From the NCBI RefSeq assembly GCF_012034205.1, contig NZ_JAATEM010000003.1, forward strand, positions 1 through 64,000: a stretch of 64,000 nt of DNA, in the 5' to 3' direction. Below the pieces are notes generated by a model. That model was not told where the DNA came from. It saw nothing but the letters and a program-made list of their open reading frames with translations, and did not search any database. The DNA is from Streptomyces composti (GTDB lineage Bacteria > Actinomycetota > Actinomycetes > Streptomycetales > Streptomycetaceae). The position numbers and the translations under genes were made by a program. Shown here piece by piece: positions 8,039 to 37,607 of the stretch. Positions within the stretch are counted from its first letter, which is position 1. Each line of letters starts with the position of its first letter.

Positions 8039-9277
8039 CTACTCGGCGTCCTCGCCCTCGATGCCGAGGCCCGGGAGCAGGCCGGGCAGCAGCGGCGGGA
8101 GGGTGACGTCGGGCTTGTCGGGCGGGGTGAGGCCATCGGTGATGGGCGGTGAGCTCTTGCCGCCGCTGCTCTCCTTGGGCGGGTCGAGCAGGCCGCCGGT
8201 GTTGCCGCCGAGCAGGCCGTCGTTCTCCTTGCCGGAGTCGGCGGAGCTGCTGGGGTCCCCGCTGCCGGAGCCGCGCTCCTGGGCGGTGCCGCCGGTGCTG
8301 CCGGGCGCCGTGGAGGCGCCGGGGCTCGAGGAGTCGCTGGGCGCCGTGCCCGAGCCGTGCTGCTTGCCGTCGCCGCCGCCCTCGCGGGCCGGGGACTCGG
8401 GGAGCATGGACTGCAGCGGGGCGACGTCCTCGTCTATGGCGTCGAAGACCGAGGAGACCTGTTCGCTGACGTCCCCGAGCTGCAGGGGCAGACGCTGGCG
8501 CAGGTCGCCCCACAGGTCGCGGTGCGACTCGGAGAAGGAGGAGAGCGCCTGCATGGGGGCCAGCGAGTCCGGGTTGCGCTGGTAGGCCTCGCGCAGCAGG
8601 CGGTGGCCCTCGGAGGCGTCGTGCCGCATGTTGGACAGGGCGTGGCGGACCTCGGAGAGGGACTCGTGGTCGAGGGAGCCGCTGCGGCCCCGTTCCATCA
8701 GGCGGCGGGCCTCGCTCAGCCGGGTGGAGGCGTGGTCGAGGTAGACCCGGCCGCGCTCGTCGTTGCCGTCGGCGAGGGTGAGTTTGACGTCCTCGATGCC
8801 GCGTTTGAGCCCGTAGAGGGTGTCACCGGGCAGGGCGTCGGAGCTGGCGGCGGCGACTCCGCCGAGCGCGCCCGCGGCGACGCCCACGCTGATGCCGCCG
8901 GCGGTGAGGCCCTTGGCGAGCCGGGAGCGGGGGCGGAGCCTGCTCAGGGCGCTCGCCCGGGGGGCGCCGTGGGCGCGGCGGCCGCGCTGCTCGGGTACGG
9001 GCGGGTCGGCCGTGCCGCCCGCCGTGTCCTCGCGCAGCATGGCCTCGAAGGCGGCCACCAGCTGGGCGCGCTGGACGGTCTTGACCTCCGGGTCCAGCTC
9101 CGGCCTGGGCAGTGCGCGGAGCTCGCCGGCGAGTTCGAGCAGTCGCGTCTGCTCGGTCTCCGCGGCGATCGGTGCCGGTCCTTCGGACTGCTCGGCCGCC
9201 GTGCCCCGGTCGGTCTGCTCCTCCAGGGCCTGGGCGAAGGCGCTCGCCCGCCGGTGCGCCGATACATTCGCGATCAC
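8039..9277 (-). CDS. rsbN: anti-sigma factor RsbN (DUF5667)
   Basis: A 412-residue membrane-anchored anti-sigma factor for BldN. The first about 120 residues are cytosolic and contain the sigma-binding part (RASAFAQALEEQ). One membrane helix lies near residues 122-145 (GISVGVAAGALGGVAAA). A DUF5667 coiled region (GDTLYGLKRGIEDVKL onward) follows, then a long Ser/Gly/Pro tail, both predicted outside the cell. GTG 9277 is chosen because AGGAGGTG lies 8 bp upstream; a GTG at 9286 overlaps that site. The position next to bldN matches Streptomyces, where RsbN holds BldN inactive until aerial growth. Confidence 0.93.
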   Translation of the reverse strand: MIANVSAHRRASAFAQALEEQTDRGTAAEQSEGPAPIAAETEQTRLLELAGELRALPRPELDPEVKTVQRAQLVAAFEAMLREDTAGGTADPPVPEQRGRRAHGAPRASALSRLRPRSRLAKGLTAGGISVGVAAGALGGVAAASSDALPGDTLYGLKRGIEDVKLTLADGNDERGRVYLDHASTRLSEARRLMERGRSGSLDHESLSEVRHALSNMRHDASEGHRLLREAYQRNPDSLAPMQALSSFSESHRDLWGDLRQRLPLQLGDVSEQVSSVFDAIDEDVAPLQSMLPESPAREGGGDGKQHGSGTAPSDSSSPGASTAPGSTGGTAQERGSGSGDPSSSADSGKENDGLLGGNTGGLLDPPKESSGGKSSPPITDGLTPPDKPDVTLPPLLPGLLPGLGIEGEDAE

Positions 9278-9407
9278 TGGCGGCACCTCCTCTCGTCATG
9301 ACGGTCGACTCCCCAGGGGGTCCTGAGGGTTCCCCCAGCCGACCACTTGCACACGATCGGGTGATCGAAGTTGGTCAGGGGGTGACCACAGGGAGCCTGC
9401 ATCCCGC

Positions 9408-9436
9408 ACAACGAGCGGTGCGGTACTTGGGTTACG
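9408..9436 (-). promoter_or_regulatory. candidate BldN-dependent promoter of rsbN
   Basis: On the minus strand CGTAAC (9431-9436) and CGTTGT (9408-9413) are separated by 17 bp. This resembles the sigma BldN promoter pattern as I remember it from bldM p1 (CGTAAC, then CGTTGA). The element lies about 130 bp upstream of the rsbN start, which would make the anti-sigma gene a target of its own sigma factor. Confidence 0.5.
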
Positions 9437-9511
9437 GACGCCGGGGGATCGGTTGATGAAGTCAACGCGGCCTCACGGAACGTGAGTTGCGGGTCGCCGA
9501 GCGTGCCCGGA

Positions 9512-10288
9512 TCAGCGGGCGTCGTCCGGCAGGAGCCGGGCGAGAGTGCGCACCGCCCGGTACTGGAGCGTCTTGATGGCGCCCTCGTTCTTGCCCATCA
9601 CCCGGGCGGTCTCGGCCACCGACAGACCCTGCAGGAAGCGCAGCGTGACGCACTCCTGCTGCTGGGGGTTGAGGCGGCGCACGGCGTCCAGCAGGGCGGC
9701 GTTGGACAGGGACTCCAGGACCGAGTCCTCGGGGGAGCGCTCGACCTCGTTGGCGTCGAGCATCTCGCCGGTGGTGACCTCCAGGCGGAAGCGGCTGGAC
9801 TTGAAGTGGTCGGCGACCAGGTTGCGGGCGATGGTGACGAGCCAGGCGCCGAAGTCGCGCCCCTGCCAGGTGAAGGTGCCGATCCTGCGCAGGGCCCGCA
9901 GAAAGGTCTCGCTGGTGAGGTCCTCGGCGGTCGCCTTGCCTCCCACGCGGTAGTAGATGTACCGGTACACGGTGTCGCTGTACTGGTCGTACAGGCGCCC
10001 GAAGGCGTCGGCCTCGCCGGCCTGGGCGCGCTCGACCAGGTCCATCATCCGAGCACTGTCGCTGTCCGCGGCGGGCCGGCGCGCGGTGGCCGCGCCCGTG
10101 GAGCGCCCGCGTCTGCCGACCGCGGCACTGCCTTCGGCGAGGGCGTAGCAGGGGCCGACGGGTGCGGTGGCGAAGGCGGGGACGGCGTACGCGGTGGGGA
10201 CGAAGCCGCGCAACAGGTCTCGGGCCGTTGCGACCGTCGCGCGCAGCGTAGCCAGGCCCGAGGCGTCAACCCCGACGTGTGGGTACAC
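9512..10288 (-). CDS. bldN: ECF sigma factor BldN
   Basis: A 258-residue developmental sigma factor. Residues 1 to about 80 form the unusual N-terminal pro-sequence (MYPHVGVDASGLATL...) that is removed to give mature BldN in S. coelicolor. Sigma region 2 spans about 81-160 (DAFGRLYDQYSDTVYRY, AEDLTSETFLRAL). Region 4 spans about 200-255 (LNPQQQECVTLRFLQGLS, GAIKTLQYRAVRTL). The GTG start follows GGGAG. BldN drives bldM, chaplin and rodlin genes. A 234-bp gap separates it from rsbN, with two small inverted repeats at 9452-9466 and 9472-9486. Confidence 0.96.
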   Translation of the reverse strand: MYPHVGVDASGLATLRATVATARDLLRGFVPTAYAVPAFATAPVGPCYALAEGSAAVGRRGRSTGAATARRPAADSDSARMMDLVERAQAGEADAFGRLYDQYSDTVYRYIYYRVGGKATAEDLTSETFLRALRRIGTFTWQGRDFGAWLVTIARNLVADHFKSSRFRLEVTTGEMLDANEVERSPEDSVLESLSNAALLDAVRRLNPQQQECVTLRFLQGLSVAETARVMGKNEGAIKTLQYRAVRTLARLLPDDAR

Positions 10289-33206: not shown

Positions 33207-33328
33207 TGAATCATAAACAAATCGGAGGGTGAGCGGGGCGGGTGTGGTCGGCCGGCCACCCGGTAAGAAGGGAGCCGGCCAGTACCGGCGCCCCCGTCCC
33301 GCGGAACGGCACTTGGCACACTGGGCAC

Positions 33329-34066
33329 GTGCCGCACACCGTTCTGCTCGCCGAAGACGACCGAGCCATCCGCAACGCTCTGGAGCGCGCCCTGACCCTG
33401 GAGGGCTACCGCGTCACCGCCGTCGCCGACGGGGTGGAGGCACTGGCGGAGGCCCACCGCAGCCGGCCCGACGTGCTGGTGCTGGACGTGATGATGCCCG
33501 GCATCGACGGGCTCCAGGTGTGCCGGGTGCTGCGCGCCGAGGGCGACCGCACCCCCGTGCTGATGCTGACCGCGCTGGTGGAGACCGCGGACCGGATCGC
33601 CGGTCTGGACGCGGGCGCGGACGACTACGTGGTCAAGCCGTTCGACGTGGAGGAGGTGTTCGCCCGGCTGCGCGCCCTGCTCCGGCGGGCCGCCCCCGCC
33701 CCCGGGCCGAACGGCACCGGCCCCGTTGCCGCACAGCCGGACACGCCGAACGCCGCCGCGCCGGGCAGGCTGCTGGAGGCGGCCGGGCTGCGCATGGACC
33801 CGCAGGCCCGCCGCGCCTGGCGGGGCGAGCGAGAACTGGAGCTGACCCGCACCGAGTTCGAGCTGCTGGAGCTGCTGCTGCGCAACGCGGGTGTCGTCCT
33901 GGACCACGCCACCATCTACGACCGCATCTGGGGCTACGACTTCGGCCCCGGCTCCAAGAACCTCGCCGTCTACGTCGGTTACCTGCGCCGCAAGCTCGAC
34001 CAGCCCGGCGCGCCGCAGCTGATCCACACGGTGCGCGGGGTCGGTTACGTGCTGCGGGAGGACTGA
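33329..34066 (+). CDS. OmpR-family response regulator
   Basis: A 245-residue two-component regulator. The receiver has VLLAEDDRAIR, phospho-acceptor Asp in LVLDVMMPGIDG, Thr in LMLTALVE and Lys in YVVKPFDVEE. A variable Pro/Ala linker precedes the OmpR winged helix (LELTRTEFELLELLL, KNLAVYVGYLRRKLD, IHTVRGVGYVLRED). GTG 33329 is chosen because the receiver strand starts there; a GTG at 33242 would add 29 residues. The histidine kinase starts 2 bp after its stop. Confidence 0.93.
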   Translation: MPHTVLLAEDDRAIRNALERALTLEGYRVTAVADGVEALAEAHRSRPDVLVLDVMMPGIDGLQVCRVLRAEGDRTPVLMLTALVETADRIAGLDAGADDYVVKPFDVEEVFARLRALLRRAAPAPGPNGTGPVAAQPDTPNAAAPGRLLEAAGLRMDPQARRAWRGERELELTRTEFELLELLLRNAGVVLDHATIYDRIWGYDFGPGSKNLAVYVGYLRRKLDQPGAPQLIHTVRGVGYVLRED

Positions 34067-34067
34067 G

Positions 34068-35507
34068 GTGCGGGTGCCGGGCAGCGCGCGCCCCGCGGGC
34101 GGGCGGCGCCGGCTGCGGCTGCTGTCGCTGGGGACCACCTTCGCGGTGGCGTTCGCCTCGGTGACCGCCGTCGTCACCGTGCTGGTCGGCCTGCTCTCCT
34201 ACAGCGCCGCGGCCCGTCTGGTGCGGGTGGACCAGCAGTCCGTCTTCGACGAGGTGGTGCAGGATCTGCGCCAGGAGGTGCGGGCGAACCGGATGACGCC
34301 GGTCGACTTCTCCTCCACCGCCCCCGGCCACGACCTGGTGCGGCCCGCGCGGACCGACGTGCAGGTGCTCGGGCCGGACGGCAGCGTCTTCGACCCGGGC
34401 AGCCCCGGCCTGCCGGTCGTCGACGCCGACCGCGAGGTGGCCGGTGCGCGCACCGCGGGGCAGGTGGTGACGCACGCGGAGGTCGACGTCGGCGACGACG
34501 TCTACCGGGTCGCCACGGTCGCGCTCGGCGGCAGCCGGGGCGCGGTGCAGGTCGCCCAGGAGTCCAGCGACACCGAGGATCTGCTGCGGGCGCTGCAGCG
34601 GCGCACGCTGGTGCTGATGCTGGCGGTGGTGGTCGGCGCCGGGCTGTTCGGCTGGTGGCTGGCCCGGCGGATCACGCGCCGGCTGGTCGTGCTGACCGAC
34701 ACCGCGGAGATCGTCGCCCGCACCCGCCGGCTCGGCATCCAGGTGCCGGTCGCCGGGCACGACGAGGTGGGCCGGCTGGGCCGCGCCTTCGACCGGATGC
34801 TGGGCCGGCTCGCCCAGTCCGAGGAGGACCAGCGCCGCCTGGTCCAGGACGCGGGCCACGAACTGCGCACCCCGCTCACCTCGTTGCGCACCAACATCTC
34901 GCTGCTGCGCCGCATCGACGAGCTTCCGCCCGGCACCCGGGAGGAACTGGTCGACGACCTCACCCAGGAGGCGCGGGAACTGACCGACCTGGTCAACGAG
35001 TTGGTCGACCTCGCGGCCGGCCAGTCGGACAGCGAGCCGCCGCAGCGGCTCGACCTCGCCGAGATCGCCGAGGACGTCGCCGGTCTGGCCCGCCGCCGCA
35101 GCGGGCGGGAGATCCTGGTCCGGGCGAGCGGCGACACCACCACCGAGGGCCGGCCCGGCATGCTGACGCGGGCGCTGTCCAACCTGGTCGAGAACGCGGT
35201 CAAGTTCGACCGCGACGGCAGCCGGCCGGTGGAGATCGCCGTCGCGGGCCCCGCCCGTCCGGGGACGGTACGGGTGGAGGTGCTGGACCGGGGGCCCGGC
35301 ATCGCCGAGGACGACCTGCTCCGCGTCTTCGACCGCTTCTACCGCGCCCCCGCCGCCCGCTCCCTCCCCGGCTCCGGCCTCGGCCTCTCCATCGTCCGCG
35401 AGGTCGCCCTCGCCCACGGCGGAGCCCCCTACGCCTTCCGGCGCGAGGGCGGCGGCACGGTGATCGGCTTCACGGTGGCGGGAGCGGGCGCGAGCGCGGA
35501 GGACTGA
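34068..35507 (+). CDS. two-component sensor histidine kinase
   Basis: A 479-residue membrane kinase. The first helix is near residues 20-44, an extracytoplasmic sensor of about 140 residues follows, then a second helix (LVLMLAVVVGAGLFGWWLA) and HAMP. The H-box is QDAGHELRTPLTSLR, with His near residue 264. The N-box is NLVENAVKF, the G1 box is DRGPGIAEDD and the G2 box is GSGLGLSIV. It is the partner of the preceding regulator. The signal is unknown. Confidence 0.93.
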   Translation: MRVPGSARPAGGRRRLRLLSLGTTFAVAFASVTAVVTVLVGLLSYSAAARLVRVDQQSVFDEVVQDLRQEVRANRMTPVDFSSTAPGHDLVRPARTDVQVLGPDGSVFDPGSPGLPVVDADREVAGARTAGQVVTHAEVDVGDDVYRVATVALGGSRGAVQVAQESSDTEDLLRALQRRTLVLMLAVVVGAGLFGWWLARRITRRLVVLTDTAEIVARTRRLGIQVPVAGHDEVGRLGRAFDRMLGRLAQSEEDQRRLVQDAGHELRTPLTSLRTNISLLRRIDELPPGTREELVDDLTQEARELTDLVNELVDLAAGQSDSEPPQRLDLAEIAEDVAGLARRRSGREILVRASGDTTTEGRPGMLTRALSNLVENAVKFDRDGSRPVEIAVAGPARPGTVRVEVLDRGPGIAEDDLLRVFDRFYRAPAARSLPGSGLGLSIVREVALAHGGAPYAFRREGGGTVIGFTVAGAGASAED

Positions 35508-35702: not shown

Positions 35703-35731
35703 TTGAACGGGCCGGAGGCTTTTTGTTATCC
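35703..35731 (+). promoter_or_regulatory. candidate promoter of the sigma/CAP gene
   Basis: TTGAAC (35703-35708) and TTATCC (35726-35731) are spaced 17 bp, just after the terminator and about 70 bp before the start codon. The -10 match is weak. Confidence 0.35.
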
Positions 35732-35801
35732 CGTCCCGGGCAGTGGCTCTCCTCTTGTGCAGGGCAGGACAGCCCCGGACCGAGAAGGAGAGTGGACGAG
35801 C

Positions 35802-37607
35802 ATGGCAGCGAGCGGGGACATGGGCGCGGCGGTCGTCGAGGCGGCGCGCAGCGGTGACCAGCGGGCGCAGGACCAGCTCGTCGCCGGCTGCCTGCCGCTG
35901 GTCTACAACATCGTGGGCAGGGCGCTGAACGGTCACCCGGACGTCGACGACGTGGTGCAGGAGACCATGCTGCGCGCCCTGCGCTCGCTCGGCTCACTGG
36001 CCGACCCCGCCAAGTTCCGGTCCTGGCTGGTGGCCATCACCATGAACCAGATACGCCACCACTGGCGCGACGGCCGCACCGTACCGGCCGGCCAGGAACT
36101 GCACGACGCGCACGACGTCGCCGACCCCGGCGCCGACTTCGTGGACCTGACCATCATCCGGCTCGGACTTCAAGGCCAGCGGCGCGAGGTCGCGGAGGCC
36201 ACCCGCTGGCTGGACCCGGACGACCAGGCGCTCCTGTCCCTGTGGTGGCTGGAAGCCGCGGGCGAGCTGACCCGCGCGGAGGTGGCCGCGGCGCTGGAGC
36301 TGTCGCCGCAGCACACGGCGGTCCGGGTGCAGCGCATGAAGGCCCAGCTGGAGACGGCCCGGCTGGTGGTACGGGCGCTGGCGGCGCAGCCGCGTTGCGT
36401 GCTGCTGGACGACGTCGTCGGCATCTGGGACGGCACCCCGTCCGCCCTGTGGCGCAAGCGGATCGCCCGCCATGCCCGGGACTGCACCCGCTGCGCCGGT
36501 TTCCAGGCCGACCTGGCCCCGGCGGAGGGTCTGCTGGTCGGCCTGGGGCTGGTGCCGGTCGCGGGCCTGCTCGGCGGGGCGCTGGCCGGTTTCGCGGGTG
36601 GTGCGGCGGATGCGGCACCGATGGCGTTCGCGGCGGACGCCGGGGCGAGCCGGCCGGCGTTCACCACGGACGCGGGGGCGACCCAGCCGATACCGGCGGC
36701 CGGCGGGGGACCGGGGTACGGCGACCACGGCTTCCCCGGCGGTCCCGTCGACGTCGATGCGCCCACGACGGCCGTCCCGCGCGCGCACGGCGCGCCCGGG
36801 CCCGAGGCGCCGACGCCCGCCGCCGGGATCGGTGCCGGCGCCGGCCCGCGCACCAGCCGCCGGGCCCGGACCCGGCAGCGCAGGCGGCGGAACCGGACCG
36901 TGGCAGCCGCCGCCGTCGCGCTGCTCGTCGCCGGCGGGACCGTCGGCGGCATCACGATCCTCACCCCGGAGGACAAGGACGGCACCACCGTGCAGTCGGC
37001 GCCCGAGGGCGTCGAACCGTCCGCCACGTCCGGCACCGATACGGTGACGCCCTCGCCCTCGCCCTCCGCCTCGCCCTCCGCCGGCCCGTCCCGCAAGCCG
37101 TCGGTCTCGGCGTCCCCGAAGCCCAGCACGTCCCCCAGGAAGACGACGGTCGCTCGCGCCACCCAGCCGGAACGCACCAGGACCGCGCAGCAGCAGCCGC
37201 GGAAGAAGCCGTCGACCACCGCGCAGGCGGCCCCCGCAGGCTCACCCGCCGCGCAGGTCCTCGCGCTCACCAACGCCGAGCGCAGCAAGGCCGGTTGTGG
37301 TCCGGTGACCGCCGACAGCCGCCTCGCCAAGGCCGCCCAGCTGCACAGCGAGGACATGTCGGCCAACAACTACTTCAGCCACACCAGCCAGGACGGCCGC
37401 TCCTTCGTCGACCGCGCCAAGGCCCAGGGCTACCCGAGCCCCGGCGCCGAGAACATCGCCAAGGGCCAGAGTTCCGCCGCGGCGGTCATGGACGCCTGGA
37501 TGAACTCCCCCGGCCACCGCGCGAACATCCTCAACTGCGACCTCAAGACCATGGGGGTCGGCGTCACCACCGACGACTGGACCTGGACCCAGGTCTTCGG
37601 CTTCTGA
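35802..37607 (+). CDS. ECF sigma factor fused to zinc-finger anti-sigma-like, transmembrane and CAP/SCP domains
   Basis: A 601-residue single chain. Sigma region 2 covers about 25-90 (HPDVDDVVQETMLRALRSL, KFRSWLVAITMNQIRHHW). Region 4 covers about 135-185 (DDQALLSLWWLEAAG, LSPQHTAVRVQRMKAQL). Next comes H224-x3-C228-x2-C231 (HARDCTRC), the zinc-binding pattern of ZAS anti-sigma factors, and a hydrophobic stretch at 243-265. A Gly/Pro linker, an Arg-rich block (350-365) and a membrane helix (366-388) follow. After a Ser/Pro linker the C-terminal 120 residues are a CAP/SCP domain (LTNAERSKAGCGP, YFSHTSQDG, GAENIA, NSPGHRANIL). It looks like sigma, anti-sigma and surface sensor in one protein. 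Confidence 0.9.
   Translation: MAASGDMGAAVVEAARSGDQRAQDQLVAGCLPLVYNIVGRALNGHPDVDDVVQETMLRALRSLGSLADPAKFRSWLVAITMNQIRHHWRDGRTVPAGQELHDAHDVADPGADFVDLTIIRLGLQGQRREVAEATRWLDPDDQALLSLWWLEAAGELTRAEVAAALELSPQHTAVRVQRMKAQLETARLVVRALAAQPRCVLLDDVVGIWDGTPSALWRKRIARHARDCTRCAGFQADLAPAEGLLVGLGLVPVAGLLGGALAGFAGGAADAAPMAFAADAGASRPAFTTDAGATQPIPAAGGGPGYGDHGFPGGPVDVDAPTTAVPRAHGAPGPEAPTPAAGIGAGAGPRTSRRARTRQRRRRNRTVAAAAVALLVAGGTVGGITILTPEDKDGTTVQSAPEGVEPSATSGTDTVTPSPSPSASPSAGPSRKPSVSASPKPSTSPRKTTVARATQPERTRTAQQQPRKKPSTTAQAAPAGSPAAQVLALTNAERSKAGCGPVTADSRLAKAAQLHSEDMSANNYFSHTSQDGRSFVDRAKAQGYPSPGAENIAKGQSSAAAVMDAWMNSPGHRANILNCDLKTMGVGVTTDDWTWTQVFGF

What the first reader, a model, noticed from the sequence alone, without database searches (positions are those of the whole stretch)
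35802..37607. Sigma factor, anti-sigma-like zinc finger, membrane anchor and CAP surface domain in one polypeptide
The sequence shows ECF sigma regions 2 and 4, then HARDCTRC (H-x3-C-x2-C, the ZAS pattern), a hydrophobic stretch, an Arg-rich block, a membrane helix, a Ser/Pro stalk and a complete CAP/SCP domain. A normally three-part signalling chain (surface sensor, anti-sigma, sigma) appears fused. Inference: the CAP domain would sit outside the cell and release of the sigma part would need proteolysis. The Arg-rich block before the helix at 366 fits one crossing; the hydrophobic stretch at 243-265 may be peripheral. Actinobacterial ECF factors with C-terminal extensions are known, so novelty lies mainly in the CAP sensor.
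Basis: partly seen in the sequence, partly recalled or inferred. Interest (0 to 1): 0.75.

Follow-up and report, generated by a model that had tools for sequence, protein, structure and literature searches.

The report
Sigma factor with built-in surface sensor
A Streptomyces gene encodes a gene switch, its likely inhibitor, a membrane anchor and an outside CAP domain in one protein; it belongs to a family with different outside domains, and a shared promoter element suggests that such switches turn on themselves and, in some relatives, secreted proteins such as CAP proteins or polysaccharide lyases.

Summary
Window 35802-37607 is one intact 601-aa gene: ECF sigma, zinc-type anti-sigma motif (C199, H224, C228, C231), one likely membrane crossing and a complete CAP domain (Pfam E 1.5e-25). 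The single-chain sigma/anti-sigma/membrane plan is known (ECF52/ECF53, SCO4117), so this is a variant. What tools added: (1) the sigma/zinc module is a family, in 80 of 101 Streptomyces-group genomes, with different outer domains (CAP, AbfB, beta-helix/pectate-lyase-like, glycosyl hydrolase, one unknown); the zinc pattern is in 117 of 117 distinct members read. (2) A bipartite promoter-like element, GTTATC-N16-[CG]TCTCC, lies 49 nt before this gene and before it in 22 of 22 nearest loci. In 199 genomes it has 132 sites against 7 for the reversed control; besides sigma genes of this family it precedes stand-alone CAP, alginate-lyase-like and secreted beta-repeat genes. (3) All 12 of 101 genomes with lyase or beta-repeat sites carry one particular paralogue (found in 19 of 101). 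Best reading: autoregulated sigma factors held by their own anti-sigma domain and freed by an outside signal. Proteolytic release and ligand are inferred. Against: in the window's own genome the element is found only at its own promoter, and only 45 of 118 family members in 101 genomes have an exact one.

The parts
35802..37607 (+). whole gene, 601 aa single-chain sigma / anti-sigma / membrane / CAP protein
   Evidence: relatives
35725..35752 (+). promoter-like element GTTATC (35725-35730) - N16 - CTCTCC (35747-35752), 49 nt before the ATG; candidate autoregulated ECF promoter
   Evidence: before the gene in 22 of 22 nearest loci; only exact site in the 6.5 Mb genome; 132 sites vs 7 control sites in 199 genomes
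35829..36371 (+). ECF sigma regions 2 and 4 (residues about 10-190)
   Evidence: Pfam Sigma70_r2 and TIGR02937; AF2 model against SigW, Z 13.8
36396..36494 (+). ZAS-like zinc motif C199-x24-H224-x3-C228-x2-C231, proposed in-cis anti-sigma domain
   Evidence: the four residues invariant in 26 of 26 aligned rows; pattern in 117 of 117 distinct members
36528..36596 (+). first hydrophobic stretch 243-265 after the conserved PAEGLL motif; probably not a crossing
36843..36896 (+). Arg-rich block 348-365 (positive-inside signal)
36897..36965 (+). membrane helix 366-388
36966..37247 (+). Ser/Pro/Lys-rich stalk
   Evidence: mostly pLDDT < 50
37260..37598 (+). CAP domain 487-599 with H515, H527, E550, H572 and the Cys pair C499/C579

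Best explanation
A one-protein signalling system. The N-terminal ECF sigma factor is held inactive in cis by the ZAS-type zinc domain that follows it; the chain crosses the membrane once and shows a CAP domain outside. An outside event on the CAP domain or stalk (ligand binding or cleavage) leads to proteolysis, freeing the sigma part. The freed sigma reads GTTATC-N16-[CG]TCTCC: its own promoter (positive feedback) and, in relatives that have one, a stand-alone membrane CAP gene. Paralogues with other outer domains read a slightly different version before secreted, partly polysaccharide-acting genes. Shown here by computation: architecture, conservation, the element, the genes behind it and its dependence on the family. 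Modelled: in-cis inhibition. Inferred: ligand, proteolysis, and that this sigma (not another) reads the element.
For: Domains, intact gene, ZAS pattern 117/117 (78), one crossing. CAP Cys pair Cys/Cys in 84 of 87 sigma-CAP rows, both changed together (Leu/Ser) in the other 3, as expected of an exported disulfide. AF2 model of residues 1-262 (pLDDT 76.5, pTM 0.66; 89) matches the whole sigma2-sigma4 arrangement of SigW held by its ZAS anti-sigma RsiW (Z 13.8, 3.0 A over 153), CnrH held by CnrY (Z 12.2, 3.6 A over 153) and RpoE held by NepR (Z 11.6, 3.9 A over 150), but polymerase-bound sigma E only at 27.4 A over 169. Element: 22/22 nearest loci, plus a second copy before the tandem CAP gene in 6/6 of L017-L022; 132 vs 7 sites in 199 genomes; of 131 non-own sites 65 precede a sigma of this family, 10 a stand-alone CAP gene, 1 a remnant, 21 alginate-lyase-like, 17 beta-repeat, 17 other. 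Sites in 56 of 80 family-bearing against 2 of 21 family-less genomes.
Against: No protein or RNA data. In the window's own genome the element is exact only at its own promoter, and its three stand-alone CAP-type genes lack even a relaxed form; of 17 one-mismatch sites there (control 7 in all) 13 lie inside coding-like frames and the other 4 lead to no clear target. In 101 genomes only 45 exact elements precede one of the 118 family members, in 42 of 80 genomes. The sigma2-sigma4 match does not extend to all anti-sigma-bound sigmas: sigma E-RseA, AlgU-MucA, SigK and SigE-ChrR align over one domain only (84-96 residues; 95). Relatedness is not corrected in the Fisher values. Hydrophobicity alone would allow two crossings (first stretch KD >= 1.6 in 74 of 86, second in 72 of 86; 80).
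Confidence: 0.7

Rival explanations
1. The CAP domain is a cell-surface effector that happens to be anchored by a sigma factor; the signal is something else (for example membrane state or the zinc domain's redox state), and the CAP domain is not the sensor.
For: CAP cavity residues are kept (H527, E550, H572 in 86 of 87), and stand-alone CAP proteins, several with the same Arg-rich/membrane/stalk/CAP plan, share the promoter element.
Against: Homologous sigma/zinc modules carry unrelated outer domains (AbfB, beta-helix, glycosyl hydrolase), which fits exchangeable sensors; one sigma-CAP row (L166) has lost cavity residues.
Confidence: 0.2
2. The element is the site of a different regulator or sigma factor; the fused sigma is merely one of its targets.
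For: Only one exact site in the own genome; 45 of 118 family members have an exact one; no binding data.
Against: Bipartite, not an inverted repeat, 16-bp spacer; sites in 2 of 21 family-less against 56 of 80 family-bearing genomes, the 3 sites in those two being a sigma-CAP remnant and two unclassified; the base before TCTCC tracks the paralogue (CG in 38 of 38 against 15 of 71); lyase/beta-repeat sites only in genomes where the L147-type sigma was found (12 of 12).
Confidence: 0.16
3. Two crossings (243-265 and 366-388), which would place the CAP domain in the cytoplasm.
For: Both stretches are hydrophobic in most relatives; a review gives one to two helices for these ECF groups (PMC8999054, passage).
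Against: Lys/Arg-rich block before the second helix (9 vs 1), Pro/Ser stalk and a paired Cys in the CAP domain all call for outside.
Confidence: 0.06
4. Sequencing or assembly fusion of two genes.
For: None found.
Against: 19 of 22 nearest loci show the complete same fusion; continuous codon bias.
Confidence: 0.01

Closest known systems
ECF52 sigma factors, SCO4117 of S. coelicolor
   Same: ECF sigma, zinc finger, membrane region, Pro-rich stretch and outer domain in one chain; autoregulation and release by proteolysis proposed (PMC5826349, abstract and passages)
   Different: Outer domain there is a carbohydrate-binding module (smart00776), not CAP; putative motif there CSGYN-17bp-SRHA, not GTTATC-N16-STCTCC. 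I had no SCO4117 sequence to compare
ECF53 sigma factors
   Same: Reviews describe a C-terminal anti-sigma/zinc finger with one to two membrane helices, and predicted glycosyl hydrolase and carbohydrate-binding domains in ECF52/53 (PMC8999054, PMC10766802; passages). AbfB, GH and beta-helix members found here fit that description
   Different: A CAP version and the promoter/target set were not in the passages I could read; two defining papers (Casas-Pastor 2021, Huang 2015) are not held and Pinto 2019 was seen only as a citation, so CAP may already be listed there
SigI / RsgI biomass-sensing systems of cellulolytic clostridia (PMC6056542, PMC4711584; search listing only, rest recalled)
   Same: Outer carbohydrate-type sensor of an anti-sigma controls secreted polysaccharide enzymes, with paralogous sets
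   Different: Sigma and anti-sigma are two proteins there (recalled); one chain here
IutY of Pseudomonas putida (PMC8999054, passage)
   Same: Sigma with a membrane-bound C-terminal extension, activated by regulated proteolysis (Prc, RseP)
   Different: Responds to aerobactin; no ZAS or CAP mentioned in the passage

Membership tests
ECF (group 4) sigma factor | sigma regions 2 and 4 only, homologous to the ECF family | tested here: met
   TIGR02937 E 2.3e-20 and Sigma70_r2, both above cut-off; fold match SigW Z 13.8. Pfam Sigma70_r4 itself did not hit
ZAS-domain anti-sigma | zinc motif H-x3-C-x2-C plus upstream ligand | tested here: met
   C199/H224/C228/C231; pattern in 117 of 117 members
ZAS-domain anti-sigma | profile match to zf-HC2 | tested here: inconclusive
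   not in the list for P0001 at E 1; one relative at E 0.059
ZAS-domain anti-sigma | binds zinc and holds the sigma | not testable with these tools
   model only
CAP/SCP (PF00188) | full-length domain with cavity residues | tested here: met
   profile 1-117 of 117, E 1.5e-25; H515, H527, E550, H572 present; that these are the cavity residues is recalled
ECF52 / ECF53 | single chain sigma + zinc finger + membrane helix + long outer extension | tested here: met
ECF52 / ECF53 | carbohydrate-binding or glycosyl hydrolase outer domain | tested here: not met
   this protein has CAP instead; paralogues in the same sigma family do have AbfB/GH/beta-helix
ECF52 / ECF53 | assignment by the published ECF group profiles | not testable with these tools
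   ECF group HMMs not on hand; two defining papers not held

The most novel reading that the evidence does not exclude
A modular family of one-protein transmembrane sigma factors in which each member's outer domain is matched to the kind of secreted protein it switches on: the CAP-bearing sigma controls itself and a sister CAP protein (a protein like its own membrane/stalk/CAP half but without the sigma), and lyase and beta-repeat genes are controlled by a paralogue with its own, still unnamed, outer domain. The CAP domain would then be a signal receptor, and the sister CAP protein would share its ligand and set feedback.
Probability: 0.42. Interest if true: 0.76.

Novelty: new variant of a known kind. 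Interest (0 to 1): 0.62.

Why it matters
Single-chain membrane sigma factors have been proposed for years but, in the papers I could read, their promoters, targets and signals are open: the one studied, SCO4117, has only a tentative motif. Here a sharp promoter-like element, the genes behind it in 100 other genomes and a paralogue-specific base give concrete reporter tests. A CAP domain as the receiving end of a sigma factor would also give an assignable role to a widespread bacterial domain whose function there is poorly known (the last point is recalled; the one search on it gave nothing usable).

Tried and rejected
Assembly fusion: rejected. Operon partner: relatives of the response regulator/histidine kinase pair at 33242-35507 lie upstream of the fused gene in 12 of the 16 loci L001-L016. 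By the ends of the BLAST matches the kinase stands about 0.3 kb upstream in L002 and L005, as in the window, and about 1 to 3.3 kb upstream in the other 10, with other genes between in L001. A functional link is neither shown nor excluded. No neighbour looked like an anti-sigma gene by eye in the loci listed; no profile search was made for that. Literature for a CAP-bearing sigma factor: searches found none in the held library; this does not cover subscription papers. Searches for ECF53 and ECF52 gave three relevant papers. Searches gave nothing usable. PMC11256431 (passages): 'CAP domain' and 'SCP' do not occur.

Corrections: L254 was first classed as sigma-CAP because two facing sites share one stretch; it is a stand-alone CAP gene. 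L185 was set apart as a remnant. Dropped before the tree: 9 rows (L011, L013, L025, L210, L215, L253, L262, L286 for cut, broken or untyped C-termini, L276 as duplicate of L154), leaving 108; 5 duplicate genes were dropped before the 117. L001-L025 and L259-L288 were picked out of their loci with patterns that already ask for part of the zinc motif; every one of these loci gave a row, and the 65 sigma genes from promoter sites were not picked that way. Outer-domain labels are by sequence patterns, checked by Pfam or NCBIfam only for examples. Of the 118 family members in 101 genomes not all outer domains were read; those above about 310 bits mostly not, so 19 L147-type genomes is a count of those found. 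Downstream starts were chosen by a coding score and are approximate.

Full report
What is there. Window 35802-37607 encodes one 601-residue protein. Domain search finds ECF sigma region 2 (27-92), a sigma70-ECF match over 22-185 and a complete CAP domain at 487-599. Pfam gives no region-4 or zf-HC2 hit for this protein. Codon-position GC is even from end to end.

A conserved set. A scan of genome contigs kept 80 loci of 270 relatives. L001-L016 are Streptomyces; L017-L022, which I call Kitasatospora-type, are two records named Kitasatospora aureofaciens and four named Streptomyces. Of these 22 loci 19 hold the complete fusion, one breaks off inside the CAP domain and two end before it. L023-L026 are Micromonosporaceae with the same sigma/zinc part; in three of the four the outer domain is AbfB (Pfam E 3.9e-38 to 1.4e-42), the fourth is cut by its contig end. 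C199, H224, C228 and C231 are invariant in 26 of 26 aligned rows, and C-x22..27-[HK]-x3-C-x2-C is in 117 of 117 distinct members.

Topology and fold. In 86 rows labelled CAP the second hydrophobic stretch is preceded by a median of 9 Lys/Arg and followed by 1, which fits one crossing with the CAP domain outside; both stretches are hydrophobic, so this is not proof. The CAP Cys pair is Cys/Cys in 84 of 87 and Leu/Ser in the same three rows otherwise. The AF2 model of residues 1-262 superposes over both sigma domains on SigW held by RsiW (Z 13.8, 3.0 A, 153 residues), CnrH held by CnrY (Z 12.2, 3.6 A, 153) and RpoE held by NepR (Z 11.6, 3.9 A, 150), and at 27.4 A on polymerase-bound sigma E; but sigma E-RseA, AlgU-MucA, SigK and SigE-ChrR align over one domain only. 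So the model resembles some inhibited sigmas, not all. The full-length model is poor overall (pLDDT 56.5); its PDB matches are CAP and sigma chains.

A promoter-like element. Aligning upstream DNA of the window and L001-L015 showed an invariant block. GTTATC-N16-[CG]TCTCC occurs at window 35725-35752 and before the fused gene in 22 of 22 loci L001-L022, and a second copy stands before the tandem stand-alone CAP gene in 6 of 6 Kitasatospora-type loci; with spacers of 15-17 it occurs nowhere else in the 81 sequences (1.30 Mb) then held, 29 hits in all. The four Micromonosporaceae loci lack it.

Genus-wide. Of 199 genomes of the same genus group 101 have an exact site; 132 sites are listed, against 7 (my count of the table) for the reversed pattern. 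All 131 non-own sites were fetched and the downstream gene typed: 60 sigma-CAP fusions, 5 sigma-family genes without a readable CAP (L147 unknown domain, L154 beta-helix, L215 cut, L210 and L253 not ending in CAP), 10 stand-alone CAP genes, 1 remnant (L185: promoter and CAP tail kept, sigma part gone), 21 in an alginate-lyase-like cluster (one member scanned: PF05426 E 3.5e-10), 17 in a secreted beta-repeat cluster (one member scanned: only repeat matches) and 17 others. The element thus stands before genes of unrelated sequence with variable spacers, which argues against mere shared descent of one upstream region.

Dependence on the sigma. The sigma/zinc module (E <= 1e-40) is in 80 of 101 genomes, 118 members. 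Exact sites are in 56 of those 80 and in 2 of the 21 without it (Fisher 5e-7); the two are the remnant genome and one with two unclassified sites. Sites before stand-alone CAP, lyase-like or beta-repeat genes are in 19 of 80 and 0 of 21 (0.011). An exact element precedes a family sigma 45 times in these genomes, in 42 of 80, so most members have a diverged element or none. Relatedness is not corrected for.

Paralogue and target go together. In all 38 lyase-like and beta-repeat sites the bases before TCTCC are CG, against 15 of 71 CAP-class sites. All 12 genomes (of 101) with such sites hold an L147-type sigma, found in 19 of 101 (Fisher 4e-11; in G099 it is cut at a contig end and was typed by its N-terminal part; typing). 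The exact promoter of L147 itself ends in CGTCTCC, and relaxed matches before 6 of the 9 other L147-type genes end in CGTCTC; the other 3 show none. For the CAP class, 6 of the 10 stand-alone CAP genes lie within about 3 kb of a gene of this sigma family (G143, G015, G175, G064, G090 read as sigma-CAP; G058's neighbour not read) and 4 on other contigs; in G143 and G015 both genes have the exact element.

Outer domains. Besides CAP: AbfB (L285 and others), glycosyl hydrolase core (L267, E 8.8e-51), beta-helix (L154), pectate-lyase PelN-like (L311, E 3.8e-23, far below that model's curated cut-off) and the unnamed L147 domain. On a tree of 108 sigma/zinc modules (quick method) CAP bearers are one side of a branch (support 91) and the six labels need 5 changes, the least possible: outer domains changed rarely, and sigma and outer domain travel together.

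Against, for this strain. In the window's own genome the element is unique, also with spacers 14-18 and a shorter -10, and the three stand-alone CAP-type genes there have not even a relaxed one. Seventeen one-mismatch sites exist (control 7 in all); 13 lie inside coding-like frames and the other 4 lead to no clear target. So the only predicted target here is the gene itself; weaker targets cannot be excluded. Nothing here shows transcription, cleavage or a ligand.

Compared with what is known. The plan sigma / zinc finger / membrane / outer domain in one chain, and release by proteolysis, were proposed for ECF52 and ECF53 (PMC5826349, abstract and passages; PMC8999054, abstract and passages; PMC10766802, passage). 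I found no paper in the held library that names a CAP-bearing sigma factor, but two main classification papers are not held. The element differs from the tentative SCO4117 motif. Works-like precedent: clostridial SigI/RsgI (listing only; rest recalled).

Noticed in passing
window 8039-10288 (-): An ECF sigma gene (9512-10288) followed by a 415-aa gene (8039-9286); looks like the BldN/RsbN pair (name recalled, not tested; P0001 matches the sigma weakly).
   Followed up: no
L185 (one Streptomyces-group genome, G027): Remnant: the sigma-CAP promoter and start are kept but the sigma, zinc and membrane parts are gone and the frame runs into the CAP tail.
   Followed up: partly
L147, L271, L273, L275, L280-L284, L288, L300-L304 and others: An outer domain with the motif QQMWQNE that matched no Pfam or NCBIfam model in the one member scanned (L147), on the paralogue linked to lyase-like and beta-repeat genes.
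   Followed up: partly
L262: A sigma-family gene whose open frame runs into transposase-like sequence (by eye) instead of an outer domain.
   Followed up: no
L166 and L331-L333: CAP-like outer domains with changed cavity residues (Glu or His replaced), suggesting that catalysis is not what matters there.
   Followed up: partly
window 33242-35507 (+): OmpR-type response regulator and histidine kinase (named by eye) just upstream; relatives lie upstream of the fused gene in 12 of 16 loci, about 0.3 kb away in two and 1-3.3 kb in ten.
   Followed up: partly
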